A stretch of 64,000 nt of DNA from Pseudoalteromonas sp. UG3-2 (GTDB taxonomy: Bacteria > Pseudomonadota > Gammaproteobacteria > Enterobacterales > Alteromonadaceae), in contig NZ_JAWLJU010000001.1 in NCBI RefSeq assembly GCF_037120705.1, positions 748,892-812,891 of the forward strand. The letters are read 5' to 3'. Under the pieces are notes generated by a model. It had not been told where the DNA came from, ran no database searches, and saw only the letters and a list, made by a program, of their open reading frames with translations. This document shows, piece after piece, positions 18,524 to 30,276 of the stretch. Every line of letters starts with the position of its first letter. Positions within the stretch are counted from its first letter, which is position 1. A program made the position numbers and the translations under genes.

Positions 18524-18554
18524 GTAAAGTCCGATATTGGTAAGTATTGGACAT

Positions 18555-18593: not shown

Positions 18594-18621
18594 CACTCCT
18601 ATAATTTATATTATGTTAAAT
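18594..18621 (+). other. dif-like recombination site, left end of prophage (attL)
   Basis: The right half, TTATGTTAAAT (18611-18621), is identical to the E. coli dif XerD arm, and the six-base spacer TTTATA differs by one base from the E. coli TGTATA. The left half, CACTCCTATAA, keeps only the inner ATAA plus one C of the canonical XerC arm. A second copy of spacer plus XerD arm occurs at 30180-30196. Interpreted as attL formed by integration into a dif or dif-like site. Confidence 0.65.
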
Positions 18622-18702
18622 AGCTAAAAATCCCGCAATTTGACGGTGGTTTATCGGTTCGACCAAAATCACCCCTCTAAGCCTCATTTTTATAAGTTTT
18701 CC
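18605..18702 (+). repeat. Left copy of ~97-bp end repeat (dif-like core plus flank)
   Basis: Begins with 19 identical bases (spacer, XerD arm and AG) and continues with diverged but collinear sequence: GGTTCG at 18656, CTCTAAGCC at 18675 and GTTTTCC at 18696. The right copy has the same words at 30230, 30249 and 30270, with the same spacing to within one base. This makes the pair a true duplicated block rather than only a short core. Confidence 0.75.
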
Positions 18703-18830
18703 TCATTTTTGGAATCATTTGAAAAATTGATTGAAAGTAAAACTATCAATCGAAAAATTTCATATAAAAACGTACTTCCGCGCAGGACGCTCGACGCAAA
18801 AACAACGTCAAAGGAAGTAAGGAAAAGACG

Positions 18831-19310
18831 ATGGCAGATTTTAAGACGCTTCTTTTTAGAGCGGGATTTATGAATTTTGGGAGGCTTGACCGCAAACAGG
18901 TATGTGATTTTTTGCTTGTGCCTGAGCGTACACTTGAACGCTGGCTAAGCAAAAACGCACCATGCCCCCGCGCTGTCAGGTTGTTGGAAATGCGCATTAA
19001 TGGAAGCGTATCTAATCACTGCGATTGGTCAGACTTTCGCATTTGCCGCGATGGTTACTTGTGGACGCCCAGCGGCAGCAAGTACACCGCCCAATACATA
19101 AATAAACTGGATGTTTTGCAAAGGACTAACCGCTATCACGAAGCCCAAGCCGCCGCCCTGAATGCTGAAATAAAACATTTGCAGGACTTGGTTTTGGCAC
19201 GTGACCAGCTCAAGGAAATGGGCAAGGATTTAATCGAAATGTCAGACCGCTTTAGGTTTAGGGATGCCATGCTTAGGTATGAGCAGCAAAAAAAGGATAA
19301 ACGCGCTTAA
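18831..19310 (+). CDS. Phage DNA-binding-like protein, DUF3653-like
   Basis: 159 residues. An N-terminal helix-turn-helix-like segment (DRKQVCDFLLVPERTLERWL) is followed by CPRAVRLLEMRINGSV, a SDFRICRDGYLWTPSG region and a C-terminal coiled coil (from about 95). This resembles DUF3653 proteins found in temperate filamentous and tailless marine phages; function unknown, probably regulatory. An AAGGAAGTAAGGAAAAGACG stretch supplies the ribosome site. It is the only rightward gene at the left end and ends at a strong terminator. In the circular phage it would lie directly downstream of the repressor across the attachment site. Confidence 0.7.
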   Translation: MADFKTLLFRAGFMNFGRLDRKQVCDFLLVPERTLERWLSKNAPCPRAVRLLEMRINGSVSNHCDWSDFRICRDGYLWTPSGSKYTAQYINKLDVLQRTNRYHEAQAAALNAEIKHLQDLVLARDQLKEMGKDLIEMSDRFRFRDAMLRYEQQKKDKRA

Positions 19311-19314
19311 TTTA

Positions 19315-19343
19315 GGGGCTGCACCGTGCAGCCCCCTTTTTTT
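19315..19343 (+). terminator. Strong terminator at left end of prophage
   Basis: GGGGCTGCA-CCG-TGCAGCCCC followed by C and seven Ts. It ends the DUF3653-like transcript and overlaps the end of the convergent leftward operon by a few bases. Confidence 0.9.
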
Positions 19344-19497
19344 AGTTTAGCGCCTCATCCAGTGCGGCCACTATTTCATCGTCTAGCTTGTTAGTAGACT
19401 TGGTTGCCAAGTGCTTGGCTGTTGATAAACACACCCGCTTAATAAACGCTTCCGTTGCGAGCTTGGTTAGTAAGTATTTTCCGATGGTTGCTAGCAT
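19342..19497 (-). CDS. Prophage small protein, 51 aa
   Basis: ATG at 19495-19497 with a GGGGGAG ribosome site four bases upstream opens a 51-codon frame, MLATIGKYLLTK to DEALN. The N-terminal half is a mildly hydrophobic amphipathic helix and the C-terminal half is acidic. Last gene of the leftward late operon, nine bases after the preceding 44-aa ORF. Position and size fit a lysis accessory or virion membrane peptide, but I do not recognise a family. Confidence 0.6.
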   Translation of the reverse strand: MLATIGKYLLTKLATEAFIKRVCLSTAKHLATKSTNKLDDEIVAALDEALN

Positions 19498-19506
19498 AGC
19501 TCCCCC

Positions 19507-19641
19507 TTATTTAATTTTCTCTTTGATTTCTTTCACTGACTCTTTGAGCCAGCGAATATCCGTTTTATTGGTTGTTACCGCGCCATAGAGAAATATGGCG
19601 TTTGCCAATATGGTGATAATGGTGTCTTGACTAATATCCAT
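19507..19641 (-). CDS. Prophage small single-TM protein, 44 aa, holin/spanin-like layout
   Basis: 44 codons from the ATG at 19639-19641 (MDISQDTIITILANAIFLYG...). One hydrophobic helix at about residues 7-23 is followed by a charged, probably coiled-coil tail (WLKESVKEIKEKIK). Next to the lytic enzyme and the 130-aa membrane protein, it could be a holin-like or envelope-disrupting protein; PM2 itself uses small lysis proteins, but homology is not shown here. Start is three bases before the 130-aa gene stop. Confidence 0.6.
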   Translation of the reverse strand: MDISQDTIITILANAIFLYGAVTTNKTDIRWLKESVKEIKEKIK

Positions 19642-19644
19642 GCC

Positions 19645-20037
19645 CTACCGCCTATTAACCGTGGCTATGGTTTTGGCAGACACCTCTTTATCAATAAGCA
19701 CCCGATACTTAGGCTTTAACTGCTGGTTACTATCAAATATTTCATCAAGCAAGAGCTTGTGACCATCGTTTAACTCATCAATCGCGCGATACCAAAGCGG
19801 GTCTTTGATGTAGTAGTCATGAGTGAGCTTTTCAGAGTCCAAGTAAAACCCAGACCACTGGCGGTGAATGGGGTGCGAACCGTTCGCCCAAAGCTGAATT
19901 TCAGCCAGAGCATTCCCCGCTGCATCCGTCAGTGGCTTAGTTATGTTTTCGGTGGTGCTTACAAACCGCTGATAAAACCAATAGACCGCGAGCAAAGTTA
20001 GGCCAAGACTGGCGTTTTTGCTGATAAAGTTACCCAT
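19645..20037 (-). CDS. Prophage membrane-anchored protein, 130 aa, unknown
   Basis: One N-terminal transmembrane helix (about residues 7-25, NASLGLTLLAVYWFYQRF) followed by a soluble region with aromatic-rich WSGFYLDSEKLTHDYYIKDPLWYRAID. Start overlaps the end of the lytic enzyme gene by eight bases. It could be a virion membrane protein or lysis component; I do not recognise a family. Confidence 0.65.
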   Translation of the reverse strand: MGNFISKNASLGLTLLAVYWFYQRFVSTTENITKPLTDAAGNALAEIQLWANGSHPIHRQWSGFYLDSEKLTHDYYIKDPLWYRAIDELNDGHKLLLDEIFDSNQQLKPKYRVLIDKEVSAKTIATVNRR

Positions 20038-20497
20038 AAAACCCCCAGTTAAAGCCCTGCTGTATTTGCTCGGGCGTGTAAGGTTGTTCGCCGTTTTCCA
20101 TCACTATCATGGCTTCGATGACTTTGGGATATTCGTCATCCGTTAGCGCCTTTTGCTTATCAACCCCTGCCCGTTTTGATACAAAGTCAATGTAATTGGC
20201 TGTGTCGTTTTCTACTGGCGGCGCCCATCGACTAATGATGCCTGCCACGTTAGTGATGCCGTATTTTTTGGCGTAGGTTCGCAGAATGCGAGCGGCGGCG
20301 CGAATGCCGTGCTCGGCGGTTTCGAAAACCGCAAAGCGCCCGTCCGTGCCAGCCAGCCCTACCCAGTTTTCGCCCGCTTCAATGTTGAGCGGGTTATTGT
20401 TGCGGATACCCCGCGCGGTTTGTTGAGTCGTCATGTATACCCCAATGCTTAGAACAATTAATGCTGTGATAATGTGTGGTGTGTCGAACTTCATCAC
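20030..20497 (-). CDS. Phage peptidoglycan-degrading/lysozyme-like protein, membrane anchored
   Basis: 155 residues. N-terminal hydrophobic helix (about 8-22, IITALIVLSIGVYM) then the phage motif ARGIRNNNPLNI, common to virion-associated muralytic proteins of several phage groups, followed by FAVFETAEHGIRAAARIL and an ISRWAPP motif typical of that structural lysozyme-like family. Probably helps genome entry or release by opening the cell wall. ATG overlaps the spike stop (ATGA). The catalytic glutamate is likely in FETAEHG, by analogy only. Confidence 0.75.
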   Translation of the reverse strand: MMKFDTPHIITALIVLSIGVYMTTQQTARGIRNNNPLNIEAGENWVGLAGTDGRFAVFETAEHGIRAAARILRTYAKKYGITNVAGIISRWAPPVENDTANYIDFVSKRAGVDKQKALTDDEYPKVIEAMIVMENGEQPYTPEQIQQGFNWGFYG

Positions 20498-22011
20498 ACC
20501 ACCTCTTTTAGCACTCTCAATTTTGAGACTGCGCTGGCTTTCGAAACAGTGGTGTCATAAAGCCGTGCCTTGTAGGTGTCGTCCGCATTCTTAGTGAGTG
20601 GTAAAGTTATAAACTTTTCATCCGTGAACGTACCAAGCACCACCCCACTACCAAAATCAGCGGTGTCATTGGGAATAGGCGTAAATGTCACCCCATCATC
20701 TTCAGATATGAGCTGTTTGCCATCTTTTATCACATATATAACCCCCCGCGACTGCGCTGACACAAGCTGAATATCTATCAGCTCGGTAATGACACCCGAT
20801 TGGCGGTTAAAAATTAAACCTTTACCACCGGAATAAACCGTAATGTGTGTGCTGCTAAAGCGCATATCAGGAAAGGTAACAACCGCTCCGAGAGAACCAT
20901 TAATATCTTGTCCTAGCGCATGTGGAAATGTTTCACAAAGCCCAGACGCCCCCGTGATGTCATAAATGAATTGATACCCTGACTTATCGCATATCGCTAA
21001 GACGCGTCTAGTGCTTTTATCGTAGAACGTTTTTCGGATAAGTATTCCTTGGTCTGATGAGAACCAGAACGCCGGTGTAGACGTGTCGCTTGGTGTATAC
21101 CAGTTCACAGCATCTTCGCCCCAGTGGTAAGCATAAAAACGCTCGCCATCATACATCAACTTTTTCCAATTGAGAGTGGATTTGGCGTAAAGCGCATTGT
21201 ATTCCGCCACTTTTTCACCCATTTCATACACCATGATTACCCCATTATCATAGAGCATCGCGACTTTATCTCTGTCGTAATCCACAACAACAATATCGTT
21301 GATGTCACCTGTTAGATTCAGTAACTTTGCACCACCCACAGAAATACGGATTGCGCCGTAAGAGCGATATTGACCAATGTGGCGCTCAGTAACGTAAACA
21401 GCATGAGCTGTTGCTGCGTTTGACCTATAATCAATGGTACTCTCACCATATCCGCCACCGTAGCGACCAACGCCATTATCTAACTCGTTAATTGTGTTAT
21501 AGGTACTACCTGAGATATACATAGGCGGCTCATCAATCGAAACAAACACCTCCGAGGATGAATTAATCTTTTTTTCAACCCCCGCTCTAACGGGTATACC
21601 CGTCTCAGGTGTGCAACCCTTTCCGCCATACCAAAAGTCGTGCGTATCGCTATACAAAACAGCAGATAGCCTTTTTGCCTCAAACGGCAAAATAGACTGT
21701 GTTCCACCGTAATGCTCTATCAAAAAGCTGTATGACTGATTACTCCCCTTAGTTGGCGCATCGTATGTTAACTTATGACTTGAAATCCAAACGTCAACAA
21801 CTTGGTTAGAACTAGAAACAAGCGTTATTTGTTTAAACTCCTCTGTTAACTCCAACTCAAAACCTGCTGTAACAACACTGTCAATTAACTTTTTAGCGCC
21901 GCTAGATGCAATCAATCTAAAGTCATACTCGCAGTTCATCACCTTAATATAGCGACCTTCTGTGTGGTCGTCGTTTGGCACACCCTGTTGTAGAATTTTT
22001 CTATTTAACAT
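20494..22011 (-). CDS. Candidate receptor-binding spike protein (PM2 P1 position)
   Basis: 505 residues, the largest late-operon product, without signal or membrane helix. An N-terminal region (to about 130) looks beta-rich and may attach to the capsid vertex; the rest shows recurring segments such as NDIVVVDYDRDKVAMLYDNG, KLMYDGERFYAYHW and KLRVLKEV-type blades reminiscent of a beta-propeller. No confident homology to PM2 P1 (335 aa) is claimed; assignment rests on size, operon position and beta-rich composition. Start TAATG-overlaps the upstream gene. It is much longer than P1, which suggests a different receptor domain. Confidence 0.55.
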   Translation of the reverse strand: MLNRKILQQGVPNDDHTEGRYIKVMNCEYDFRLIASSGAKKLIDSVVTAGFELELTEEFKQITLVSSSNQVVDVWISSHKLTYDAPTKGSNQSYSFLIEHYGGTQSILPFEAKRLSAVLYSDTHDFWYGGKGCTPETGIPVRAGVEKKINSSSEVFVSIDEPPMYISGSTYNTINELDNGVGRYGGGYGESTIDYRSNAATAHAVYVTERHIGQYRSYGAIRISVGGAKLLNLTGDINDIVVVDYDRDKVAMLYDNGVIMVYEMGEKVAEYNALYAKSTLNWKKLMYDGERFYAYHWGEDAVNWYTPSDTSTPAFWFSSDQGILIRKTFYDKSTRRVLAICDKSGYQFIYDITGASGLCETFPHALGQDINGSLGAVVTFPDMRFSSTHITVYSGGKGLIFNRQSGVITELIDIQLVSAQSRGVIYVIKDGKQLISEDDGVTFTPIPNDTADFGSGVVLGTFTDEKFITLPLTKNADDTYKARLYDTTVSKASAVSKLRVLKEVV

Positions 22012-22940
22012 TATTTATCCTTAAGCATGTAAGCAACTAAACCAAACGCAGTCACACCACCGACAACACTAAACACCACCATCATGGTTTTGTTGGTACT
22101 TACTGCAAGTTGCTGGTCGTCTGAGCGACTGGCGTGGTCGGCAAATTGAAACGCTTGCTTGTTGGCTAAAATGGATTGGTCGGACGCGGTTTTATAGGCG
22201 TCTTGAGTTGCGCTTAACATGGACTCGGTTAAGTCGCGAGCAAGGTTATTGCCCTTGTCGATTGACACATAAGCCAAGTCTGACATGCGAGCGTTTGAAT
22301 TGTCCGCCGCATCAATTGACATACCCGCCAGCGTGGCTGAATTGTCCATTGCATCCGTGGCAATATCACCCACACGCGCATTTGCATCGTTCAAGGCGTC
22401 AGCGGTGGCGCTGATAGCCCCATCAGCGAACCCAATCACTTCACTGCTAAGCCCTGCGGAGTAATCAACCATATCTCGCGCTAAGTCGCCGTTTTGGCTG
22501 ACCGCTTCAATAGCCAAGTCGGATTGCGCACTAATGCTTGAGTTTGCAAGATTCTCGTTTGATGCAAGCGCATCGCCTGCAAAGTCGAGTGAATCGCTGT
22601 TTACATTGCTGATGTGCGACATTGCACTTTCACCGAAGCCTAACGCGCTGTAGAGCGAGTTATCAGCAAAGTCGAGTGAGTCGCGATTGACGTCAGACGC
22701 AAAATTAAAGCCGTCACTGGTCATCTGACTTGCGGTGTCAAATCCCGCAATGTTTGCATCAACCAAATTACCGCCGATGGATTCCATCGCTTCCACTAAG
22801 CCGTGGTCTGTTTGGGTTATGTTGTAGGTGTTCCCGTCACCGTTGGTTATATAGCCATTATTATCACCGTGCACACCCAAACTTGTGGATGTGTTATTGG
22901 TGGTTTGGCTGCTACGGGATTTCGATTTACTTCCCATCAA
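22011..22940 (-). CDS. Repeat-rich coiled-coil membrane protein of the prophage virion (predicted)
   Basis: 309 residues. Ser/Thr/Asn-rich N-terminus (GSKSKSRSSQTTNNTSTS and GDNNGYITNGDGNTYNI), then about 190 residues of imperfect roughly 11- to 22-residue repeats around DSLDFAxxAL / DNSxxLAxxSI, and a single C-terminal TM helix (TMMVVFSVVGGVTAFGLVAYML) ending LKDK. The layout suggests a long helical fibre or trimeric stalk anchored in the viral membrane, for instance linking vertex or delivering DNA. Family not recognised. A second ATG three bases on is an equal start candidate. Confidence 0.65.
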   Translation of the reverse strand: MMGSKSKSRSSQTTNNTSTSLGVHGDNNGYITNGDGNTYNITQTDHGLVEAMESIGGNLVDANIAGFDTASQMTSDGFNFASDVNRDSLDFADNSLYSALGFGESAMSHISNVNSDSLDFAGDALASNENLANSSISAQSDLAIEAVSQNGDLARDMVDYSAGLSSEVIGFADGAISATADALNDANARVGDIATDAMDNSATLAGMSIDAADNSNARMSDLAYVSIDKGNNLARDLTESMLSATQDAYKTASDQSILANKQAFQFADHASRSDDQQLAVSTNKTMMVVFSVVGGVTAFGLVAYMLKDK

Positions 22941-23283
22941 GCACCATCCTATAAACTAAATACCCATCCGCTTGAGTTTCTGCGTATTCAAACGGATAAG
23001 CAGACAAAAGGCGTTTTAGCCCTTTGCGTTTTGTATGAAAGATAATTGACGGGGCGCAAATGCGCTTAGCAAATTCGAGAATAAGCGGGGCGGCGCTCAG
23101 TAGCTTTTTTCCTTGAGCACATACCACGCATAAACCATCACGGTCCGCACGTAGTACAAAGTAACAGCCAGCGTGTTCAACCAGCATGGCTTTGCCGTTT
23201 TCCACTTCGCTTTTGATTTCATCATAATCACCTGCTGCGGCGGTCTTAACATGATGAAATTCGCTAATGTGAGCTAAGCGCAC
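22927..23283 (-). CDS. Prophage small protein, GNAT-like fold suspected
   Basis: 118 residues. The pattern of a beta strand (CYFVLRADRDGLCVVCAQ), a helix LILEFAKRI, APSIIFHTKRKGLKRLLSAYPFEY and a closing strand YLVYRMVL resembles a minimal GNAT acyltransferase fold, but the acetyl-CoA pyrophosphate loop is not clear. Small GNAT-like proteins occur in several DJR and tailed phages. It overlaps the next gene by 14 bases. Could equally be an unrelated structural protein. Confidence 0.5.
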   Translation of the reverse strand: MRLAHISEFHHVKTAAAGDYDEIKSEVENGKAMLVEHAGCYFVLRADRDGLCVVCAQGKKLLSAAPLILEFAKRICAPSIIFHTKRKGLKRLLSAYPFEYAETQADGYLVYRMVLDGK

Positions 23284-23293
23284 CCCGCCCCCG

Positions 23294-23512
23294 TCATTTG
23301 TTTAACAAGTAAATACCCAGCAGCACGAACCCGCCGATAATTAGCAGCTGGTTGTTACCGCCGCCATTACCAAAGTTCACACTGCCGCCATGAAAACCAA
23401 TTTTTTGGGATTGGTCGCCGGTGCCTGATGTTGCCCCCGAACTAATGGGACTTCCCGCCCCATTTTGTAGGTTAGGCACAGCACCCGTTGCCCCCAAAAG
23501 ACCGCCCAGCAT
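23294..23512 (-). CDS. Prophage single-TM virion membrane protein, 72 aa
   Basis: Gly/Ser/Asn-rich flexible N-terminal part (about 1-52) and one C-terminal helix (LLIIGGFVLLGIYLLNK). Composition matches small integral membrane proteins of PM2-like virions, which have several such proteins under the capsid shell. Its ATG overlaps the stop of the 41-aa ORF (TAATG). Confidence 0.65.
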   Translation of the reverse strand: MLGGLLGATGAVPNLQNGAGSPISSGATSGTGDQSQKIGFHGGSVNFGNGGGNNQLLIIGGFVLLGIYLLNK

Positions 23513-23637
23513 TACTGCGCCGCCTGCTTTCTGGCTTGGTATTTACGATATTGGTCGCGCAACACTTCCGCAGTGAGCGCGCCACATGCCGCAATTGCGA
23601 CCCCTTTTAAAAATGCTTTGGTATTTTTATCCATCAT
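23512..23637 (-). CDS. Prophage mini-protein, 41 aa
   Basis: ATG at 23635-23637 opens 41 codons, MMDKNTKAFLKGVAIAACGA to RKQAAQ. A short hydrophobic stretch at about 10-24 precedes a basic tail rich in Arg/Lys/Gln. It overlaps the previous gene by four bases (ATGA) and the next by one (TAATG), so translational coupling on both sides argues it is real. The MDKNTK opening resembles the MFDKNT opening of the 35-aa ORF before the capsid gene, perhaps a shared leader. Confidence 0.65.
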   Translation of the reverse strand: MMDKNTKAFLKGVAIAACGALTAEVLRDQYRKYQARKQAAQ

Positions 23638-23939
23638 TTCACCGCCTTAATTACTAATGCCACACCCAGTAAGCCCACCGACCCCATTAGCAAGTGCGAT
23701 TGCTTAATGCCAAAAATCTCAGGCTCTTGGGGTTTCGCTGGTTGCGCTGTTTGTTTTGGGGTATCGACCACCACGGCCGCGCCGTTGTCCAGCTCGGTGG
23801 TGTTGGCCTGCTCGTTTTGTAGCTGCCCTGTCGATGCCTTTTTAGCTTTTATGGCCTCAACGTTCCCCCATACTTCTAAGGCGCGGCCTAGAGCCGAATC
23901 AACCGACCCCCAAAAGCCGTTATTTGCTGCTGCTGACAT
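23634..23939 (-). CDS. Prophage membrane protein directly after the capsid gene, 101 aa
   Basis: Soluble N-terminal part with an amphipathic helix (SVDSALGRALEVWGNVEAIKAKK), a Pro/Gln-rich linker and one C-terminal TM helix (LLMGSVGLLGVALVIKAV). Starts nine bases after the capsid gene. Probably a virion membrane protein bridging membrane and capsid, the role of PM2 P3/P6; inference from position and topology. Confidence 0.65.
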   Translation of the reverse strand: MSAAANNGFWGSVDSALGRALEVWGNVEAIKAKKASTGQLQNEQANTTELDNGAAVVVDTPKQTAQPAKPQEPEIFGIKQSHLLMGSVGLLGVALVIKAVK

Positions 23940-23948
23940 ATTGCCCCC

Positions 23949-24794
23949 TTAGAACGAACTTGATGCGTAGTCGTCCACGTAATGCACCACCACTTCCGCC
24001 GCGCCACTTTCATCGGAGTCAATGCGCAAGCGCATATCATGAATGGCGTCTTTGCCTTCGCTTGCGAGTTTAAGCGCTGCAAACACATCGCCTTGCTGCA
24101 TTAAATCCACGGCAAAAGTGTCTGTGATTGGCTGGCGGCCATTTTGTTTAAGGATGTGTTTGTGCAGTTTCAGCGGTACGCGCTCGCGCCACTTGTTGTT
24201 ATTCACCAAAAATTCAACTTCGGTTACACCGACTTTGTTGTCCGTGTCTTGCACTTTTTTGTGGATTTCGATTAGCGCAATGTGAGCGCCATCTGGGCGT
24301 GGAATGTCTGCCACCTCGTTTGTGCCCTCGGCAAAGTTGAAGCGGAAAACGCGGCGCTTAAATAGCCAACCAGGCATAGTACCCGCCGACTTTTGCGCAT
24401 AGGCTTTGATTTGCGGATTGGTGGCGGCGCTATCAATATCGAACTTGATTTGTGCAAGGCTCAAACCCACCGTACCAAGGCCGAAAAAGCGTTCAACACG
24501 CAAGCTTGGGTGCAGTGCGCTGCGCATTTCTTCGCGAGTAAAGTGCAACGTAACAAGGCCATCTAACTGCTCGCGCTTGTAATAGTTGTTTTCATTGACC
24601 AAATCAGCCAAGGACGGGTATTCCGTCAACATGCGACCATTGAGTTCAACACGAAAGTTTGTGATTTGTGCAGGCGTGACGCCCTCTAATTCAAAAAACA
24701 CCTTTTCATACGTTAGGCCAATTGGCAGGCTAAGCGATGCCGTACCGCCAGATTGAACGCCCGTGATGTTGTTAAGTTTGGATAGTTCTAACAT
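23949..24794 (-). CDS. Major capsid protein, double jelly-roll, PM2 P2-like
   Basis: 281 residues versus about 269 in PM2 P2. It matches P2 as I remember it along most of its length: the opening SLPIGLTYEK..., GVTPAQI, RVELNGRMLTEYPSL, FGLGTVGL, IKFDIDSAATNP with QKSAGTMPGWLFKRR, ADIPRP, KWRERV and the ending DLRLRIDSDESG / EVVVHYVDDY. Trimers of two eight-stranded jelly rolls form the pseudo-hexagonal capsomers that cover the internal membrane. This is the strongest single piece of evidence for the element's identity. Ribosome site GGGGGTAGC just upstream. Confidence 0.93.
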   Translation of the reverse strand: MLELSKLNNITGVQSGGTASLSLPIGLTYEKVFFELEGVTPAQITNFRVELNGRMLTEYPSLADLVNENNYYKREQLDGLVTLHFTREEMRSALHPSLRVERFFGLGTVGLSLAQIKFDIDSAATNPQIKAYAQKSAGTMPGWLFKRRVFRFNFAEGTNEVADIPRPDGAHIALIEIHKKVQDTDNKVGVTEVEFLVNNNKWRERVPLKLHKHILKQNGRQPITDTFAVDLMQQGDVFAALKLASEGKDAIHDMRLRIDSDESGAAEVVVHYVDDYASSSF

Positions 24795-24803
24795 GCTACC
24801 CCC

Positions 24804-24911
24804 TTAACCGATGATGAAACGTTTAACCGAGCGTAGCGCTCGGACGTTACTGATAAGTGCTAGTGAACCTAGCGTGATAGCGACTGGAATAAGAGTATTT
24901 TTATCAAACAT
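24804..24911 (-). CDS. Prophage mini membrane protein upstream of capsid gene, 35 aa
   Basis: 35 codons from the ATG at 24909-24911: MFDKNTLIPVAITLGSLALI followed by a basic tail with VKRFIIG. One TM helix at about 8-21. A perfect GC hairpin, CCGAGCG-TAG-CGCTCGG (24827-24843), lies inside the tail-coding part, so selection on RNA structure and on protein may overlap. Ends nine bases before the capsid ATG. Short, so coding status is moderate. Confidence 0.55.
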   Translation of the reverse strand: MFDKNTLIPVAITLGSLALISNVRALRSVKRFIIG

Positions 24912-24975
24912 GTGATTACCTAATTTAAAGTTAACGCTCATTGCGTGTTAAAAGCGCTTATTAATAAATCAGGCG

Positions 24976-25050
24976 TTTCGCTCTTGGGGCAAACGGTTTT
25001 CGCTCCCCCTAGAGCGAAAAGAGCGAAATTTTCGCTCTTTTGGGGCGAAA
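24976..25050. repeat. Alternating TTTCGCTC / GAGCGAAA repeats forming competing hairpins
   Basis: Six copies of the 8-mer or its complement lie in 75 bases between the ATPase and capsid genes. 24997-25005 pairs with 25012-25020, while AAAAGAGCGAAA at 25017-25028 pairs perfectly with 25030-25041 around one base, followed by T-rich sequence. The two hairpins share bases and exclude each other. The second could act as a terminator or processing site in the late operon. The same motif recurs within the upstream coding region to about 26560. Confidence 0.7.
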
Positions 25051-25073
25051 TTCAATGTGGTTTTTTCTTGAAT

Positions 25074-25874
25074 TTACGCTTTTTCTGTTTCTCCTTTGAA
25101 TTGCTCCATAGTCAATTTGTGCACTTTGCCCGTTTTAATGTCGATGTAACACGGCTCAACTTGCCCAATCCCGCCCTTGTGTTTGACCAGATAGTAAAGA
25201 CGCTTATCTTCGTATTGCCCGTTCAACACACTAATGCGAATGACGTTCGCCATTTCGGTGGAAAATTCGGTGGCCATTCGCTTGGCGTCCGCTTCCACCT
25301 CTTGCGCCCCGAGCACTTTGCGAGGGCTGTTACTCCAGATGGTTTTTGGCACTTCTTGCGAGCGCTGGAAAACCGTATGCAGCACAATGCCATATTTACG
25401 GCCACCCGTTGCCAACTCACCCACAATGGTGTCATCTTTACCCACCGAATCGGTTAGCTTGGCTAATTCCTCAATGACCACATCAAGGTCTCGATTACCG
25501 TCCGATGCGTTCCACATCAACTGTGCGAACCATTCAAGCTCTCGCTTTCTGGCTTCTTTGAGTTCAGCGCCTTTCAGTGTCACTGGGAACTCTGGGCAGT
25601 ATGCAACCACGAATGCTTTGCCGCTTGACCACGCATCAATGAAATTTTTAGCGAATGTCTTGCGGGAATTAAAGCGGTAAATCGGACGACCACCCAACCC
25701 ATTAAACGGCGACTTGCTTCGCCCATCAAAGCTATATTCACCGTACAAATCGAAAATGGCCGCGTGCTTGCCAACCATCCCCATTAACTTAATGGCGGCG
25801 GACTTGCCGCCGCCCGTCCCTGCTAGCGTGCAGGAGTGACGCGGCTTTAGTGCATTTTTTGGATTAACTGCCAA
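25074..25874 (-). CDS. Genome-packaging ATPase, FtsK/HerA superfamily (PM2 P9-like)
   Basis: 266 residues. Walker A GTGGGKSA at about 19-26 and Walker B-type DVVIEE at 131-136 with tandem acidic residues, then the HTVFQRSQEVPKTIW segment with the Q/R typical of HerA-type ATPases. Such an enzyme powers translocation of the dsDNA genome into the preformed capsid. It sits one small ORF away from the capsid gene, the usual ATPase-capsid pairing of DJR viruses. Start overlaps the previous gene by 11 bases. Confidence 0.88.
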   Translation of the reverse strand: MAVNPKNALKPRHSCTLAGTGGGKSAAIKLMGMVGKHAAIFDLYGEYSFDGRSKSPFNGLGGRPIYRFNSRKTFAKNFIDAWSSGKAFVVAYCPEFPVTLKGAELKEARKRELEWFAQLMWNASDGNRDLDVVIEELAKLTDSVGKDDTIVGELATGGRKYGIVLHTVFQRSQEVPKTIWSNSPRKVLGAQEVEADAKRMATEFSTEMANVIRISVLNGQYEDKRLYYLVKHKGGIGQVEPCYIDIKTGKVHKLTMEQFKGETEKA

Positions 25875-26406
25875 CTTGCACCCCCTGCTTTTCGCTGCTG
25901 ATTTCGCTTTGCTTTTCGCCCTTTCGCACTTGGGAAATAATCGAAACCGCCGTGGTCGCGAGCACTAGGCCAAGCTGGAATTCCTCTTGGTATTTCGCCA
26001 GCCACGCTGGCATTTTTCCGCCTTTGCAGTGCTTCTTAATCACAGGTAACGCGCGTTCGGTGATGACTTCCCGCGTGTCGTTGTCGATGGTAACAGGCGT
26101 ATCAAAGCTGGATTCAACAAAGTTGGCTATTTGCTCAACCCCCAGCGCCGTTACGCCTATCATGTCCTCATCGGTGAGCGCTTCCGCTTCCACTGTTTCG
26201 GTGGTGTCGGGCTGCGCTTGGTCTAGCTCTGCGCTTTCGCCTTGATAGCTAGCTAGATGCGAGTACTCGAATTCCTGCGACGGCGCAGAGTCCTGCGACA
26301 ATTCCACGTCCGATTGCGCTCCAATTTGCTCCGCCGTCATTTCGGTTTCGCTCGGGTTCGCTGTTTGTTCGCTCTGCGTTTCGCTCTTGATTTCGCTCTT
26401 GCTCAT
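25864..26406 (-). CDS. Prophage acidic protein with C-terminal TM helix, 180 aa
   Basis: About 80 N-terminal residues are Ser/Glu/Gln-rich and disordered (SKSEIKSETQSEQT and similar), followed by a folded-looking domain (about 88-140) and a TM helix near 146-162 (LGLVLATTAVSIISQ) with a basic tail. Codons for Ser-Glu give many GAGCGAAA repeats. An AAAAGGAGC ribosome site stands before the ATG, which lies inside the upstream gene: 158 bases are read in two frames. Likely a virion membrane protein; family unknown. Confidence 0.65.
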   Translation of the reverse strand: MSKSEIKSETQSEQTANPSETEMTAEQIGAQSDVELSQDSAPSQEFEYSHLASYQGESAELDQAQPDTTETVEAEALTDEDMIGVTALGVEQIANFVESSFDTPVTIDNDTREVITERALPVIKKHCKGGKMPAWLAKYQEEFQLGLVLATTAVSIISQVRKGEKQSEISSEKQGVQVGS

Positions 26407-26698
26407 GGCTTTTTTGCTCCTTTTCGCTTAATTGTGGCGTCCACTCGTCAGCCTTTGGTGTGTGTGTAATAACGGGTTGATTTTCGGTTGCTTCAATAGC
26501 GAAACTTTCGCTTGTTTCGCCCTTAATGGCTTTTTCCCATTTCGCTTGAATTAGGTGGCCGCTTCGCTTATCCATACCGCAATTTTTACAATGCAAATAC
26601 AGGTATTGCTTGCCCGTTCTTTGTCTGCGTATTGCGGCCATGCCATTGCAACCATCGCATTCAATGTGGCCTAAATCGGGGTTAGTGGACTTGCTCAT
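26249..26698 (-). CDS. Prophage zinc-ribbon protein with C-terminal TM helix, 149 aa
   Basis: Starting at the ATG 26696-26698 (MSKSTNPDLGHIECDGCNG). Four cysteines in CDGC and CKNC, about 24 residues apart, should bind zinc in a ribbon fold; a charged Glu/Arg/Asn-rich middle (QERNQERNAERTN region) leads to a C-terminal helix (GRGIVAGLCAVAGIRVLA). The longer frame from 26842 is rejected because it would overlap all of the next 65-aa gene. Its 3' third overlaps the 180-aa gene in another frame. Perhaps a membrane-tethered nucleic-acid binder; no family recognised. Confidence 0.65.
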   Translation of the reverse strand: MSKSTNPDLGHIECDGCNGMAAIRRQRTGKQYLYLHCKNCGMDKRSGHLIQAKWEKAIKGETSESFAIEATENQPVITHTPKADEWTPQLSEKEQKSHEQERNQERNAERTNSEPERNRNDGGANWSAIGRGIVAGLCAVAGIRVLASS

Positions 26699-26879
26699 AT
26701 TCACCCCTTGCGCCAGTGACGCCCTCCAACATTTCAATTCGATGCGCCATTTCTGACCACAGCGTGACCGCGTCTGCAATGGCTTTTTCAGCCAGTGCAA
26801 TTTTGGCGGCGGCTCGTATTGCAGGCATATCTTTAGCCTCATTTATCGTTTCTTTGATGCGTTCAATTTTTTTCAGCAT
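26682..26879 (-). CDS. Prophage small helical protein, 65 aa
   Basis: MLKKIERIKETINEAKD to EYEQVH, almost entirely helical and probably coiled coil, preceded by AAGGAACAG. Overlaps the following gene by 17 bases and starts nine bases after the ribbon-helix-helix gene. Function unknown; position among early genes suggests regulation or replication. Confidence 0.6.
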   Translation of the reverse strand: MLKKIERIKETINEAKDMPAIRAAAKIALAEKAIADAVTLWSEMAHRIEMLEGVTGARGEYEQVH

Positions 26880-26888
26880 AACTGTTCC

Positions 26889-27080
26889 TTAAATCGCCTT
26901 TTTCATTTTGCCAGTTACCAAGTCACGCGCCATAAATGGCACATGGTTTGGGTTTTCACACAAGAACTCGCACATTTGCCTCACTTCAACTTCGGCGTGT
27001 TCCGGTATCCAGACTGTGAGCTTTTTTTCGCCTTTTTGTTTGCGCCCTTGCTCGTAGCGCTGGTTTCTACTCAAAGCCAT
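26889..27080 (-). CDS. Prophage ribbon-helix-helix-like regulator, 63 aa
   Basis: Basic N-terminus (ALSRNQRYEQGRKQKGEKK) and a strand-helix-helix pattern KKLTVWIPEHAEVEVRQMCEFL, in the style of Arc/MetJ proteins in which the VWIP strand inserts into the DNA major groove. PM2 has small transcription factors in the equivalent early region, though direct homology is not claimed. Its start overlaps the end of the replication gene by 14 bases. Confidence 0.65.
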   Translation of the reverse strand: MALSRNQRYEQGRKQKGEKKLTVWIPEHAEVEVRQMCEFLCENPNHVPFMARDLVTGKMKKAI

Positions 27081-29010
27081 AAGCGTTCCCCGTCACCAGT
27101 GACAACTCATCAAAAGCCATTACCTCATGGGGTTGGACTCGTTCAAATCGGTCATAGAAATTACACAGCGAATCAAGCGAATCGTTCACTGCTTGCTGTG
27201 TTTGGATTAGCCATTTATTAACTGCGCTTTCGTCTTGTTTGGCTTGCTCTATGTGGTCGCTATCGGTGCATTTACCGAATGCGGTTTTAAGCCTCCAGCC
27301 GCGAACCCCGACCGCCCAATTGATAAAGTCTAAAAATTGATTGTCGCTGGCAAACTGCACCATGCCGCCACGGGCAAAATTGCCGTACACCTCTTGGCCT
27401 AGGGCTTTGGTCTTGCTCTCCAATGACTTCATTTTGTCGGTGAGTTTTTCAATGAAGCGCTGGCGCTTTTCGCTGTATTTGGCTTTGTTGAGCCCTTTTT
27501 GCTTTTCGCGCTGTGCGATGGTGTCGCGTAGCTTTTTCGATAACTTGGCCTTGCGCTTTTGCTTGGCTTCCAGCCCTTGCATGTATTCCTGAATTAGTCC
27601 GTACATGTGCTGTGCCTCATGGGTCGCACAATTCTCCCAAGGATGGGCGCGTGCGCTTTTGCTGATGTTATAGCGGTTGCCTTTAATTTCGCCTTGGTCG
27701 CCCTCTTGGCCTTTGGTCATGTAGCCCACGGCTTTGAGTAAATACTTGGCGGCGGCGTTGGCGTTTTGAATGCGCTCAAGCGTGACAAACCCACACCCCC
27801 AACGCGCTTCTATTCGTGCCGCCCATTCACGAAAATGGTGCTTTTCAACATTCCAACGCATGAGCATGTGAACGTGATAGTTTTGGTGTCCAAGCGATGA
27901 TACTTTGCCCCACGGATAAGTGCGGGTTTCGATGACTTTTCGCGGCGCTTCCGCTACCCAGATGTAATCGAACACGGGTTTATCGCTTGCACCGACACAC
28001 TCAATCACATGGGGTTTGCCGTCCCACTGGTAAATACGTTGGTTTTCATGAAGCACATCGGTGCGAACCTTTTCACCGCCGACAAATTTCACGTGGGTAA
28101 AGTCGCCCGAGGCGGCCACCGCTTTTTTGCCGATTTTCACCTTGTCACCCGCGACACCCGCGCCGCCGTTACGACTCACCCAACCGCGCTTGTGCATCTT
28201 GCCAAGGTTATCTAAAAACGGGCTGAGTAATTGGCCGATGGTTGTTTGGTTGTTATCGAGCATCTTGCGCGATTGCTCGTTAAAGGTGATGGTCGCAAAC
28301 GCATTGAACCCGCCTTTTACGGCTTGCATATACAAACCACTATCGACAATTTTGCCGCTGGCGCGGCTGGTTAATTTATCGGTCACTCTATCACCGGTGT
28401 TTGATTCGGGCGCATCACTGGTTTGGGTAAGTTGAGTGCACACAATGCGATAGCTGTTATCCCAGTTGCGAGTTTGAAAATGGGCGCGACTCTTGTTGTA
28501 GTCCACTTTGCCGCCACGGTAGCCAGTAAACTCGGGGCTAAAGGTGACTTTTTTGCCATTTTTGCGGGTTAGCTCGCGTGGCGTGGTGTCCTGCACAGTG
28601 GCATCAAAGTGGTTTGGTTCGATGTAACTAACGGCCTTGGCGGTGATTTCACCTGTTTCAAAGTCCATGCGTTCACCATCGCGCAACCCTAGGCGCTGTA
28701 AACGCTGCTCAGGCGTCATTTGGTTAACCGCTGCCGTGTATAGGTTTTCAGCTTTTAGCTTTGTCTGTGCTTGCTGGGCTGCGCTAACGTGCGGTTTTTT
28801 GGACTTTTCTAGCCCTGTCGGACTTTTGCGGCCTCTGACAAGCCTAGCTTTTTCCACCCCTTTCGGGGCGTCCGCTTCGCGGTCTTTTCGGTCTTTTGCT
28901 TCAATCCACCAAAGGTTTGAATTTTTCGCTACGGGTGAACCAACAAAAGCGCCACTTAGGGCGCTTTCTGCTGCATCTTGAATGATATGCTCGGGGATAT
29001 TAATTGACAT
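27067..29010 (-). CDS. HUH-type replication initiator (PM2 P12-like), rolling circle
   Basis: 647 residues from an ATG behind GGGGGTGATA; a GTG 15 bases upstream is less likely. Motif 1-like FATITFN at 238-243, metal-binding HVH at 379-381 (in NYHVHMLMRW) and a motif 3-like block AAKYLLKAVGYMTKG with Tyr423 and Tyr430 and lysines as candidates for the nicking residues. A long N-terminal region and a basic coiled-coil C-terminal region flank the nuclease. PM2 P12 belongs to the same superfamily. It nicks one strand to start rolling-circle replication. Largest gene of the early operon. Confidence 0.8.
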   Translation of the reverse strand: MSINIPEHIIQDAAESALSGAFVGSPVAKNSNLWWIEAKDRKDREADAPKGVEKARLVRGRKSPTGLEKSKKPHVSAAQQAQTKLKAENLYTAAVNQMTPEQRLQRLGLRDGERMDFETGEITAKAVSYIEPNHFDATVQDTTPRELTRKNGKKVTFSPEFTGYRGGKVDYNKSRAHFQTRNWDNSYRIVCTQLTQTSDAPESNTGDRVTDKLTSRASGKIVDSGLYMQAVKGGFNAFATITFNEQSRKMLDNNQTTIGQLLSPFLDNLGKMHKRGWVSRNGGAGVAGDKVKIGKKAVAASGDFTHVKFVGGEKVRTDVLHENQRIYQWDGKPHVIECVGASDKPVFDYIWVAEAPRKVIETRTYPWGKVSSLGHQNYHVHMLMRWNVEKHHFREWAARIEARWGCGFVTLERIQNANAAAKYLLKAVGYMTKGQEGDQGEIKGNRYNISKSARAHPWENCATHEAQHMYGLIQEYMQGLEAKQKRKAKLSKKLRDTIAQREKQKGLNKAKYSEKRQRFIEKLTDKMKSLESKTKALGQEVYGNFARGGMVQFASDNQFLDFINWAVGVRGWRLKTAFGKCTDSDHIEQAKQDESAVNKWLIQTQQAVNDSLDSLCNFYDRFERVQPHEVMAFDELSLVTGNAYGFE

Positions 29011-29176
29011 TATCACCCCCAACACTTTTTAGCTGTTGCTCACACCACTCGATACAACCACCACACAACCAAATATCATACTCTTGCTGTGCAACAGTGC
29101 ATAACTCCAGCGGTACTGTGTAAGAAGCGTAATTGTCTGCGTGTTCGTTTTCGCAGATTTCACAAGGTGAATTCAT
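29000..29176 (-). CDS. Prophage Cys-rich zinc-binding small protein, 58 aa
   Basis: MNSPCEICENEHADNY opens the frame with GGGGTGA in front; a longer frame to 29236 is not needed. Cysteines pair as CEIC and CGGCIEWC, a probable single zinc site. Sits between two early genes with overlaps at both ends (11 bases with rep, 17 with the upstream gene). Possible anti-repressor or replication partner; family not recognised. Confidence 0.6.
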   Translation of the reverse strand: MNSPCEICENEHADNYASYTVPLELCTVAQQEYDIWLCGGCIEWCEQQLKSVGGDNVN

Positions 29177-29399
29177 GTTCACCCCACACGCTACCGATAA
29201 CCCCGCATCTTGAAACAGTGTCACCAACCAACTCATCTAATTTGTGAGCAATTTGGTGCATTCCACACTCGTGAAAATCATCAACAAGGCTCAACCATAA
29301 ATCAACTGACGATTCGCAAATAGGAGCTTTTAAGCGTGGCAACCCTACGCAAAGCCCAATCCCGCAATTAAGGGCGTTGTAATACGTGTTCGACTTCAT
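29160..29399 (-). CDS. Prophage early protein, 79 aa, unknown
   Basis: MKSNTYYNALNCGIGLCVGL with GGGGGC before the ATG; mixed helical composition including DLWLSLVDDFHECGMHQIAHKLDELV and several scattered Cys and His. Its ATG overlaps the previous stop (ATGA). No family recognised; kept because of coupling and ribosome site. Confidence 0.55.
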   Translation of the reverse strand: MKSNTYYNALNCGIGLCVGLPRLKAPICESSVDLWLSLVDDFHECGMHQIAHKLDELVGDTVSRCGVIGSVWGEHEFTL

Positions 29400-29614
29400 A
29401 GCGCCCCCTGCTTGTTCCAATAGCTCGCAGAGTGCAACGCGCTCATGTCGGTATATTCATTGATTTGCTGCGCCGCTGGTTCAGGGCGTGGTTTTTTGGG
29501 GAAGTGCTTCGCCTTTAAAGCGCGTACAAGTTTTAACTGTCGTTCCCAGTGCTTAGGGTCGTTTATCAGAGTGTTCAGCATGGTCATCACCTCGGCTAAA
29601 AGTTGGTTATTCAC
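29396..29614 (-). CDS. First gene of the prophage early operon, 72 aa, unknown
   Basis: GTG start at 29612-29614 (MNNQLLAEVMTMLN), ending NKQGAL; a mostly helical, basic middle (LKAKHFPKKPRPEP). Internal ATGs at 29587 and 29581 are alternatives. It begins 18 bases from a 30-bp palindrome with a LexA-type box, so it is the first product released when repression is lifted. Function unknown. Confidence 0.5.
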   Translation of the reverse strand: MNNQLLAEVMTMLNTLINDPKHWERQLKLVRALKAKHFPKKPRPEPAAQQINEYTDMSALHSASYWNKQGAL

Positions 29615-29631
29615 TTCGGCTTCATAAAAAT

Positions 29632-29661
29632 GTGACTACTGTATGGCCATACAGCAGTCAC
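29632..29661. promoter_or_regulatory. 30-bp operator palindrome containing a LexA-type SOS box
   Basis: The two 15-base arms, GTGACTACTGTATGG and CCATACAGCAGTCAC, are complementary except for one position. The core CTGTATGGCCATACAG (29639-29654) fits the LexA rule CTGT-N8-ACAG. It stands 18-47 bases before the first early gene and 136 bases before the divergent repressor. It may be bound by host LexA, by the phage repressor, or by both, giving SOS-linked induction. Confidence 0.65.
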
Positions 29662-29797
29662 GCCGAAGCAATTGTTTCCAGTTGAGAAAACCAGTAACAG
29701 GAAAGAAATTACCATCCACGGCGGTGCATAACAACCACCACGGAACATAGTGAATATCGTGGTTACTACGTCTACAATCAAAAACAGGGATTTTTTG

Positions 29798-30091
29798 ATG
29801 ATGAGAAAACTTATGAAAATTACCAACTCGATTGAGCTGCTTGACTGGTTTAAAAGCGCCATTGATGTTGACTCTGACTATATGGTGGCTAAGTTAACAG
29901 GTCTTAGAACACAAACGTTAAGCCAAATCAGAACAGGAAAACGCGAGTTTTCAGAACTTAACGCCTTAAAGCTACTTTTAGTTGGCGAGCACCCCGACCC
30001 CTTAGAAATTATGGCTATTCTTGAAGCTCACAAGGCTGAAAGTCGAGGGGATGAAGAAGCGGCAAAAATATGGCGAAAAAGCGTTGCTTAG
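29798..30091 (+). CDS. Prophage repressor-like HTH protein, DUF3693-like
   Basis: 97 residues from an ATG seven bases after AGGGA. The core IELLDWFKSAIDVDSDYMVAKLTGLRTQTLSQIRTGKREFSE is a Cro/CI-style helix-turn-helix; the family DUF3693 occurs in temperate phages of marine bacteria. Divergent from the replication operon with the palindrome between them, the classic position of a lysogeny repressor. In the integrated state it is the last gene before attR. Confidence 0.75.
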   Translation: MMRKLMKITNSIELLDWFKSAIDVDSDYMVAKLTGLRTQTLSQIRTGKREFSELNALKLLLVGEHPDPLEIMAILEAHKAESRGDEEAAKIWRKSVA

Positions 30092-30104
30092 GCACGCCAA
30101 ATAA

Positions 30105-30122
30105 CCCCGCCATTTTGCGGGT
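30105..30122 (+). terminator. Weak hairpin after the repressor
   Basis: CCCCGC-CATTTT-GCGGGT, short stem with no T-run. A second ACCCGC at about 30137 offers an alternative pairing. Read-through toward the attachment site is therefore possible. Confidence 0.35.
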
Positions 30123-30168
30123 AAACAAAACGTTAAACCCGCTTAACACAAGGCTTAGAGCAAAACAA

Positions 30169-30196
30169 ACCTAACATACTTTATATTATGTTAAAT
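30169..30196 (+). other. dif-like recombination site, right end of prophage (attR)
   Basis: Spacer TTTATA (30180-30185) and XerD arm TTATGTTAAAT (30186-30196) are identical to the left site. The XerC half ACCTAACATAC departs strongly from the canonical arm. With 18594-18621 it defines the element ends. Confidence 0.65.
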
Positions 30197-30276
30197 AGGC
30201 AATTTACAGACATTTTGGCGGTAAATTTAGGTTCGTCATGAAAAGTTGCTCTAAGCCCTATTTTTATATGTTTTCC
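30180..30276 (+). repeat. Right copy of ~97-bp end repeat (dif-like core plus flank)
   Basis: Same collinear words as the left copy: XerD arm, GGTTCG at 30230, CTCTAAGCC at 30249, an ATTTTTATA tract and GTTTTCC at 30270. After 30276 similarity stops. If the exchange occurs in the spacer, this copy is the host flank and the left copy is the phage-borne one. Bases 30277-30356 hold nothing I can name. Confidence 0.75.

What the first reader, a model, noticed from the sequence alone, without database searches (positions are those of the whole stretch)
18605..30198. PM2-like double jelly-roll prophage, complete and without its own integrase
The capsid protein at 23949-24794 shares phrase after phrase with PM2 P2, and an HerA-type ATPase, HUH initiator and several one-helix membrane proteins accompany it. 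Temperate members of this virus group are few compared with tailed phages, and this one looks intact. No recombinase lies between the end repeats, so integration must be catalysed in trans.
Basis: partly seen in the sequence, partly recalled or inferred. Interest (0 to 1): 0.8.

Follow-up and report, generated by a model that had tools for sequence, protein, structure and literature searches.

The report
PM2-like prophage at chromid dif site
A complete-looking PM2-type membrane virus of marine bacteria sits inserted at the site where the second chromosome is normally untangled; it has no integrase of its own, and it carries a gene that may switch on the host's recombinases, as does the textbook lytic virus PM2.

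Summary
Confirmed and sharpened. The element (18605-30196, unit 11,575 bp) is an apparently intact Corticoviridae prophage in a Pseudoalteromonas-genus genome. Its capsid is PM2 P2 (42% identity; predicted fold matches 2vvf, TM 0.91). No integrase was found inside. The end repeats, TTTATATTATGTTAAAT, are the central hexamer plus XerD arm of dif; the left copy also has a dif-like XerC arm, the right one does not. The insertion is in the dif of the 813-kb chromid. Host XerC and XerD are present. Among 27 capsid clusters compared, 20 of 20 with this gene lack an integrase and 7 of 7 without it have one (Fisher p 1.1e-6; not independent). Lytic PM2 has both site and gene. Elsewhere in the order, 14 of 20 fuller-length relatives have a dif-like site within 400 bp upstream (0.83 expected). 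Against: PMC11630473 reports Vibrio tailless prophages at dif that do carry integrases. Dif-integrated corticoviruses and PM2's dif are already in print; I saw no report of the activator link. Nothing here shows recombination experimentally.

The parts
17315..18568 (-). Chromid tyrosine recombinase (TyrR), outside the prophage; conserved host gene
   Evidence: PF00589 43.8 bits; XerC model 70.7 bits against a cut-off of 335.15; in 103 of 108 genomes of the genus
18594..18621 (+). Left attachment site: 28-bp dif-like, XerC-side arm CACTCCTATAA, hexamer TTTATA, XerD arm TTATGTTAAAT
18831..19310 (+). DUF3653 / VC1465-like protein, candidate Xer recombination activator; homologue of PM2 Orf a
   Evidence: NF040522.1 E 7.4e-10, 38.9 bits, cut-off 70; PF12375 22.8 bits, cut-off 22.4; 55% identical to PM2 Orf a
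19342..19497 (-). PM2 Orf l homologue
   Evidence: 65% identical
19507..19641 (-). PM2 Orf k homologue
   Evidence: 34% identical, E 5e-4
19645..20037 (-). PM2 P6 homologue, virion protein
   Evidence: PHROG 20312 E 7.1e-30; 35%
20030..20497 (-). PM2 P5 homologue, lysin
   Evidence: PHROG 873 E 1.4e-53; 53%
20494..22011 (-). PM2 P1-like spike protein; N-terminus conserved, remainder variable
   Evidence: PHROG 24031, residues 1-174 only; 25% over 158 residues to PM2
22011..22940 (-). PM2 Orf j homologue, C-terminal hydrophobic stretch
   Evidence: 34%; hydropathy 2.10
22927..23283 (-). Small conserved corticoviral protein
   Evidence: 33-69% in relatives, no match in PM2; PHROG 610
23294..23512 (-). 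PM2 P8 homologue
   Evidence: 42%
23512..23637 (-). Position of PM2 P4
   Evidence: PHROG 37720 virion protein E 2.5e-6; no tblastn match in PM2
23634..23939 (-). PM2 P3 homologue, virion protein
   Evidence: PHROG 19558 E 1.4e-27; 52%
23949..24794 (-). Major capsid protein P2, double jelly roll
24804..24941 (-). PM2 P7 homologue
   Evidence: PHROG 30767 E 1.5e-8; 58%
25074..25874 (-). Packaging ATPase P9
   Evidence: PHROG 2666; 32% over 102 residues to PM2, 59-94% in 12 sister loci
25864..26406 (-). Position of PM2 Orf h
   Evidence: gene order; 37-66% identity to sister elements, no match in PM2
26249..26842 (-). Position of PM2 P14
   Evidence: gene order; 39-74% identity to sister elements, no match in PM2
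26682..26879 (-). Position of PM2 P13
   Evidence: gene order; 37-66% identity to sister elements, no match in PM2
27067..29025 (-). Rolling-circle (HUH) replication initiator
   Evidence: invariant HxH and YxxKxxxY in 6 sequences; 30% identical to NO16, no match in PM2
29000..29614 (-). Small early ORFs 29000-29236, 29160-29420, 29396-29614
   Evidence: 46-75% identity in the G089 prophage
29750..30091 (+). HTH repressor-like protein, PM2 Orf c homologue
   Evidence: PHROG 4441 E 4.2e-27; 74% identical to PM2 Orf c
30169..30196 (+). Right attachment site: divergent XerC-side arm ACCTAACATAC, hexamer TTTATA, XerD arm TTATGTTAAAT

Best explanation
This is a temperate corticovirus prophage of the PM2 group that uses the host's chromosome-dimer-resolution machinery. 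The circular virus DNA carries a half-dif attP (hexamer and XerD arm conserved, XerC arm degenerate) between the HTH repressor-like gene and the DUF3653 gene. Host XerC and XerD recombine attP with the dif of the 813-kb chromid. The chromid keeps a full dif at the left end (host XerC arm + hexamer + XerD arm) and gains a half-site at the right. The DUF3653 protein next to attP is a relative of the VC1465 Xer activators and most likely helps the virus trigger recombination, perhaps independently of FtsK. The HTH protein presumably holds lysogeny; after release the genome replicates by a rolling circle from the HUH initiator and is packaged by P9 into a P2 shell with an internal membrane. Shown by sequence: virus identity, open core genes, the dif nature and position of the ends, no tyrosine integrase found, host XerC and XerD present, linkage of the DUF3653 gene with dif ends. 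Inferred: Xer catalysis, activation by the DUF3653 protein, repression, inducibility, membrane.
For: Capsid identity and 13 genes found by tblastn in the same circular order in PM2. Ends carry the same 17 bp as dif sites of sister genomes. Own genome has XerC (348.8 bits, cut-off 335.15) and XerD (387.5, cut-off 329.6). The DUF3653 protein hits NF040522 in 11 of 11 corticoviral copies tested, 31-47 bits. Across 27 capsid clusters (97% nucleotide identity) the DUF3653 gene is in 20 and a tyrosine integrase in the other 7, with no overlap (Fisher p 1.1e-6). 16 of the 20 (all but NO16, PG21, L109, L110) have an exact XerD arm; 0 of the 7 integrase-type clusters has one in the DNA scanned. In PM2 the site (747-757) lies between Orf a and Orf c, the place at which the prophages are opened. 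The gene family also sits next to dif elsewhere: 14 of 20 fuller-length relatives in the order have a dif-like site within 400 bp upstream, 0.83 expected; of 9 partial matches 1 does, 0.40 expected. Of 15 of these loci without a corticoviral capsid or ATPase in the DNA read, 10 have the site.
Against: All 11 corticoviral DUF3653 proteins tested score below the curated cut-off of 70 bits for NF040522, and none of 295 genomes of the order reaches it. The predicted fold is weak (pTM 0.38) with no PDB match at E 0.001. Partial HTH matches to the model are common. 6 of the 20 fuller-length relatives have no dif-like site upstream, and several of the 20 come from the same genera, so they are not independent. 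PMC11630473 states that Vibrio tailless prophages targeting dif regularly carried integrase genes (passage), so the split seen here does not hold for all tailless viruses. The attP is the mirror image of the TLCphi attP as described in PMC5357621 (passages). A second recombinase (TyrR) lies 37 bp away. The profiles were built partly from the sequences they then recover. At least 5 of the 20 activator-type records (L035, L092, L096, L109, L110) are partial or end at a contig edge. No induction, virion or empty-site data for this strain.
Confidence: 0.77

Rival explanations
1. The chromid-borne tyrosine recombinase TyrR (17315-18568), 37 bp outside the left repeat, and not XerCD, integrates the element.
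For: It abuts the site, aligns with XerC and XerD at the Arg, HxxR and Tyr signature, and 21 of 30 TyrR loci have an exact XerD arm within 1.5 kb.
Against: Sister prophages sit at dif on the large replicon in G089, G124 and G070, where TyrR is on the other contig. The site has a canonical XerD arm. TyrR is in 103 of 108 genomes, only 12 of which have the capsid; of the 5 without it, 4 (G002, G016, G087, G102) still have two dif sites. It could still act in trans: all 12 capsid-bearing genomes have it.
Confidence: 0.1
2. Xer-dependent integration without any phage activator: FtsK or XerC-first catalysis suffices, and the DUF3653 protein is an ordinary regulator such as a Cro-like factor.
For: HTH-like N-terminal part; score below the family cut-off; it lies next to a repressor-like gene across attP as a regulator would; CTXphi and VGJphi are described as using XerC catalysis (PMC5357621, passages).
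Against: Co-occurrence with dif ends and exclusion by integrases in this sample, although shared ancestry could also produce it; linkage to dif in other elements.
Confidence: 0.25
3. A domesticated or decayed corticovirus remnant that no longer moves.
For: No virions or free circle seen; one genome only.
Against: The core genes are open, 13 of them in PM2 order; capsid frame without stops; both attachment sites intact.
Confidence: 0.12
4. Inserted by chance or homologous recombination, the 17-bp repeats being coincidental.
For: Short repeat.
Against: Exact match to dif sites of sister genomes; 0 of 100 shuffles reach the count; sister elements have the same anatomy at other dif sites.
Confidence: 0.01

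Closest known systems
Pseudoalteromonas phage PM2 (Corticoviridae)
   Same: Capsid P2 42% identical, 13 genes in the same order by tblastn, HTH Orf c 74%, Orf a 55%, and the same half-dif TTTATA-TTATGTTAAAT between Orf a and Orf c
   Different: PM2 is called strictly lytic (PMC1950889, passage); its initiator P12, P13, P14, P4, d, e and h gave no tblastn match; spike differs; 10,079 bp against 11,575 bp
Pseudoalteromonas phage Cr39582
   Same: Same site and Orf a; called a temperate PM2-like phage in PMC9966536 (passage)
   Different: 42% capsid identity
Vibrio phage NO16 ('Asemoviridae')
   Same: Double jelly-roll temperate virus proposed to use XerCD and dif (PMC9966536, abstract and passages); its gene 7 hits the VC1465 family, E 1.6e-12
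   Different: 28% capsid identity; the dif-like site that I read between genes 6 and 7 keeps the XerC side rather than the XerD arm (my reading)
TLCphi satellite phage with XafT
   Different: Not a membrane virus; attP conserves the XerC side (PMC5357621, passage); homology of the activator is distant and was not tested against XafT itself
Pseudoalteromonas phage GXT1010
   Same: Best phage-record capsid match, 58%, with the same half-dif and Orf a homologue
   Different: Partial record; initiator gave no match and the spike only 145 residues

Membership tests
[quoted passage not shown]
Corticoviridae | P9-type packaging ATPase and structural module in PM2 order | tested here: met
   P9, P7, P2, P3, P8, j, P1, P5, P6 matched in order to PM2 by tblastn; P4 only by PHROG
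Corticoviridae | Circular dsDNA genome of about 10 kb | tested here: inconclusive
   11,575-bp unit between repeats; the circular form cannot be seen here
Corticoviridae | Virion with internal membrane | not testable with these tools
   hydrophobic stretches only suggest it
Xer-exploiting integrative elements (IMEX) | Inserted at dif, with a dif-like attP | tested here: met
Xer-exploiting integrative elements (IMEX) | No integrase of its own; host has XerC and XerD | tested here: met
   (tyrosine recombinases, ORFs of 80 codons or more)
Xer-exploiting integrative elements (IMEX) | Integration depends on XerC/XerD | not testable with these tools
   needs a bench test
VC1465 family Xer recombination activation factors (NF040522) | Score over the curated cut-off of 70 bits | tested here: not met
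   38.9 bits, E 7.4e-10; called a relative, not a member
VC1465 family Xer recombination activation factors (NF040522) | Activates XerD without FtsK | not testable with these tools
   only genomic association
TLCphi-type attP | XerC arm and central region conserved, XerD arm divergent | tested here: not met
   the reverse is found: XerD arm and hexamer conserved, XerC arm divergent
HUH rolling-circle initiators | His-x-His and catalytic Tyr motif | tested here: met
   motifs invariant in 6 sequences; no family model matched

The most novel reading that the evidence does not exclude
The Pseudoalteromonas corticoviruses, PM2 included, are a lineage of Xer-exploiting temperate viruses that carry a portable module: HTH repressor, half-dif attP of a mirror-TLCphi type, and their own Xer activator of the VC1465 superfamily. 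The type virus of the family, used as a lytic model, would then hold a complete but unnoticed lysogeny module whose attP matches a dif of its genus, and in the main subclade the 6-bp central region, not the replicon, would decide which chromosome is entered.
Probability: 0.45. Interest if true: 0.7.

Novelty: new member of a known kind. Interest (0 to 1): 0.52.

Why it matters
Tailless prophages at dif have been reported, but how they recruit recombinases was left open: PMC11630473 calls it inconclusive whether host recombinases or own integrases are used, and says that those Vibrio prophages often carry integrases (passages). In the 27 capsid clusters compared here, one gene next to the site separates dif-type from integrase-type elements, and it is related to known Xer activators. 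If right, this re-reads NO16 gene 7 (annotated S-adenosylhomocysteine hydrolase) and PM2 Orf a, and makes the statement that PM2 is strictly lytic directly testable in laboratory strains.

Tried and rejected
E. coli-type dif with up to 3 mismatches finds nothing in the window, so the site was found through the XerD arm. A first own-genome pattern was mis-specified and found nothing; corrected. No near DNA relative in the phage records. The 159-aa protein against PDB sequences gave only chance-level matches, and its predicted fold likewise. The idea that the downstream repeat 18675-18709 / 30249-30283 is a host accessory sequence was put aside: the right flank scores 43 to this phage's left end (null maximum 25) and 37-42 to those of G089, G070, S2755, L101 and L102 (null maxima 26-32), 31 to G124 and 30 to PM2, but 25-26 to the flanks of the two empty chromid sites compared (null maxima 28-31). 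One entry there, G028_chromid, was placed one base off. 'XafT' as a search word gave 48 papers, 20 listed, all off topic; DUF3653 is held by 1 paper, a Vibrio phage-resistance study seen only in the listing. The genome-contig scan named the genus through relatives but not the window's own species.
Full report
What is there. The window is bases 748,892-812,891 of contig C1 (812,891 bp) of a 4.16-Mb genome whose other contig has 3,349,174 bp. C1 is therefore read as the chromid. Within 18605-30196 the core genes of a corticovirus are open. Thirteen match PM2 by tblastn in the same circular order: Orf a, Orf c, P9, P7, P2, P3, P8, j, P1, P5, P6, k and l. P4 is assigned by PHROG; h, P13 and P14 only by position; the initiator matches NO16, not PM2. 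P2 matches PM2 P2 by Pfam, PHROG, PDB sequence and predicted fold. The spike has a conserved N-terminus and a variable remainder.

The ends. The repeats are TTTATATTATGTTAAAT, that is the 6-bp central region and the XerD arm of a dif site. At the left the 11 bases before them, CACTCCTATAA, resemble the XerC arm of other dif sites of the genus; at the right they are ACCTAACATAC and do not. This is the anatomy of an Xer-exploiting element: a full dif is left at one junction and the half-site of the virus marks the other. The own genome has one more exact site, ATAA-TTTACG-TTATGTTAAAT on the main chromosome; the genome has one capsid gene, so that site holds no such prophage. Its gene neighbourhood shares two or more genes with 7 of 10 main-chromosome dif sites of other species that I read, one gene with an eighth, none with two (G008, G068). 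XerC and XerD are both encoded on C2 and exceed their NCBIfam cut-offs.

Two ways of integrating. I compared 15 capsid-bearing elements from 12 of 108 genomes of the genus, five phage records and 19 IMG/VR contigs. Capsids collapse to 27 clusters at 97% nucleotide identity. Of the 8 genome-contig loci, 7 fall into these clusters and the eighth, L091, a 3-kb record, was not used. Twenty clusters carry the DUF3653 gene (tblastn and a profile; the profile includes NO16 and PG21, so those two match by construction, L109 and L110 do not), and in none did I find a tyrosine recombinase inside; the one seen on L101 is the host TyrR beyond the dif. Seven clusters carry a tyrosine integrase (for L057 found only after extending the flank, L134; the recombinase profile was built partly from these integrases), and none has the DUF3653 gene or, in the DNA scanned, an exact XerD arm. 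Fisher p is 1.1e-6 for 20/0 against 0/7; shared ancestry makes this less independent than the number suggests, and at least 5 of the 20 records are partial. Of the 20, 16 have the exact XerD arm; the 4 NO16-like ones (L036, L038, L109, L110) do not. In NO16 and PG21 I read a dif-like site between the HTH and the DUF3653-like gene, and in L110 one just beyond that gene, at 1-2 mismatches; L109 showed none. Against the generality of this split, PMC11630473 states that Vibrio tailless prophages targeting dif regularly carried integrase genes (passage).

The candidate activator. Protein 18831-19310 hits NCBIfam NF040522, 'VC1465 family Xer recombination activation factor', at E 7.4e-10. Ten corticoviral homologues (PM2, NO16, PG21, GXT1010 and six prophages or contigs) all hit it, 31-47 bits. 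None reaches the curated cut-off of 70 bits, so I call them relatives. XafT, encoded by one Vibrio cholerae Xer-exploiting element, is described as a XerD-activating factor that escapes FtsK dependence (PMC9765430, passage, citing Midonet 2019, which is not held); that VC1465 is XafT is my recollection. As a separate test I searched 295 genomes of the order with NF040522: 92 match, none over the cut-off, many only in the HTH part. The search gave 30 loci, the best ones; without our own, 20 have a match reaching profile position 80 or more and 9 a shorter one. In the 400 bp upstream (235 bp for L162), a dif-like XerD arm with at most 1 mismatch occurs in 14 of 20 (12 in the same orientation, 2 opposite) against 0.83 expected from resampled sequence, and in 1 of 9 against 0.40. 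Reading 19 of the 20 at 11-20 kb (L162 was not fetched), 4 carry a corticoviral capsid or ATPase; of the other 15, 10 have the site, so the link to dif is wider than this virus group, although several of the 15 come from the same genera. The corticoviral profile in turn recovers the protein in 18 of these 19 loci at E 0.001. The predicted structure is an N-terminal helical part, a beta hairpin and a long helix, at low confidence.

PM2. PM2 and Cr39582 carry TTTATA-TTATGTTAAAT, XerD arm at 747-757 on the minus strand, between Orf a (the DUF3653 protein, 77-550) and Orf c (HTH, 850-1128); in PM2 it overlaps the tiny putative ORF b. The window prophage is opened at this place relative to its genes. 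A presumptive PM2 dif was already printed in PMC9966536, which also suggests an unseen lysogenic life style (passages); the presence of an Xer-activator relative next to it is what I add. In PMC9966536 the NO16 homologue is called S-adenosylhomocysteine hydrolase (passages). In the listings of searches and the passages I read, no paper links corticoviruses with such a factor; the library holds open-licence papers only, and most of the listed papers were not read.

Which replicon. Of 10 activator-type elements whose two ends I could both read, 7 have the same hexamer at both ends (window, G089, G124, G100, G070 TTTATA; L093 ATTACG; S2755 TTTACG, there as the two ends of one contig) and 3, of another subclade (L069, L099, L100), do not. 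Among the 7, the insertion is on the large replicon in G089, G124 and G070, probably beside the main-chromosome dif in S2755 (contigs not joined), on the chromid in the window and L093, and undetermined in G100; L101, with one end read, is on a chromid. The closest relative in a genome, in G089 (79% capsid identity), sits at TTTATA on its 4.13-Mb chromosome, whereas ours sits at TTTATA on the chromid. So in this subclade the hexamer, not the replicon, seems to be followed. Cautions: agreement could also arise by conversion during integration, since phages with at least 97% identical capsids carry TTTATA in G070 and TTTACG in S2755; and the three unlike cases show that integration can do without full agreement.

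What is known. Temperate corticoviruses at dif are in print: NO16 (PMC9966536), a few tailless Vibrio prophages at dif of both chromosomes (PMC11630473), Jorvik at dif-like att sites without a predicted integrase (PMC10589892), and prophages at or near dif2 of Pseudoalteromonas chromids (PMC7858055); all seen as passages, not whole texts. Krupovic and Bamford 2007 found PM2-like prophages, some with integrases (PMC1950889, passages). Divergence of central regions between dif sites of non-homologous chromosomes is also known (PMC2533119, passages). The prophage is thus a new member of a known kind; the activator relative and the mirror-type attP are the new parts of the reading.

Confidence. 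Virus identity and dif ends are near certain. Xer catalysis is likely, by analogy and site identity. The activator role is probable but rests on distant homology and genomic association. Repression and inducibility are inferred from gene content.

Noticed in passing
17315-18568: A 417-aa tyrosine recombinase beside the chromid dif is in 103 of 108 genomes of the genus; 21 of 30 loci read have an exact XerD arm within 1.5 kb. Of the 5 genomes without it, G001 has one contig and one dif site, the other 4 have two sites. It scores 70.7 bits to XerC against a cut-off of 335. Its role there is unknown to me.
   Followed up: partly
18605-18621; G000:C2:621932-621952: Central hexamers of dif seem to have changed replicon within the genus: of 17 TTTATA sites in assemblies of at most 8 contigs whose contig length a call printed (those I fetched), 10 are on contigs of 3.3 Mb or more and 7 on contigs of 0.8-1.35 Mb.
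   Followed up: partly
30197-30290: The host flank right of the prophage resembles phage left ends (alignment score 43, null maximum 25), perhaps a scar of an earlier corticovirus at the same dif.
   Followed up: partly
L069 4259-13910, L099 1043-10882, L100 685-11114: A subclade of dif-type corticoviruses whose right-end hexamer differs from the left one (GGGACA, CAAACA, GGTCGA), so strand exchange there may need little homology.
   Followed up: no
L036 6606-7037; L038 9602-10018: Genes annotated S-adenosylhomocysteine hydrolase in phages NO16 and PG21 hit the VC1465 Xer-activator family (47.5 and 46.4 bits, below the cut-off) and may be misnamed.
   Followed up: yes
L058, L059, L065, L067, L071: These integrase-type corticoviruses lie beside a gene I recognise from memory as dusA, a tailless-prophage hotspot in Vibrio (PMC11630473).
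   Followed up: no
L170, L171, L181, L184, L186: In other genomes of the order a tyrosine recombinase lies next to a VC1465-like gene, in L170, L171 and L181 also with a dif-like site, recalling the TyrR-dif-DUF3653 order of this window.
   Followed up: no
L074 1-21 and 10216-10236: The S2755 prophage contig appears to begin and end with the same bases around the site, as a circular or tandem form would.
   Followed up: no
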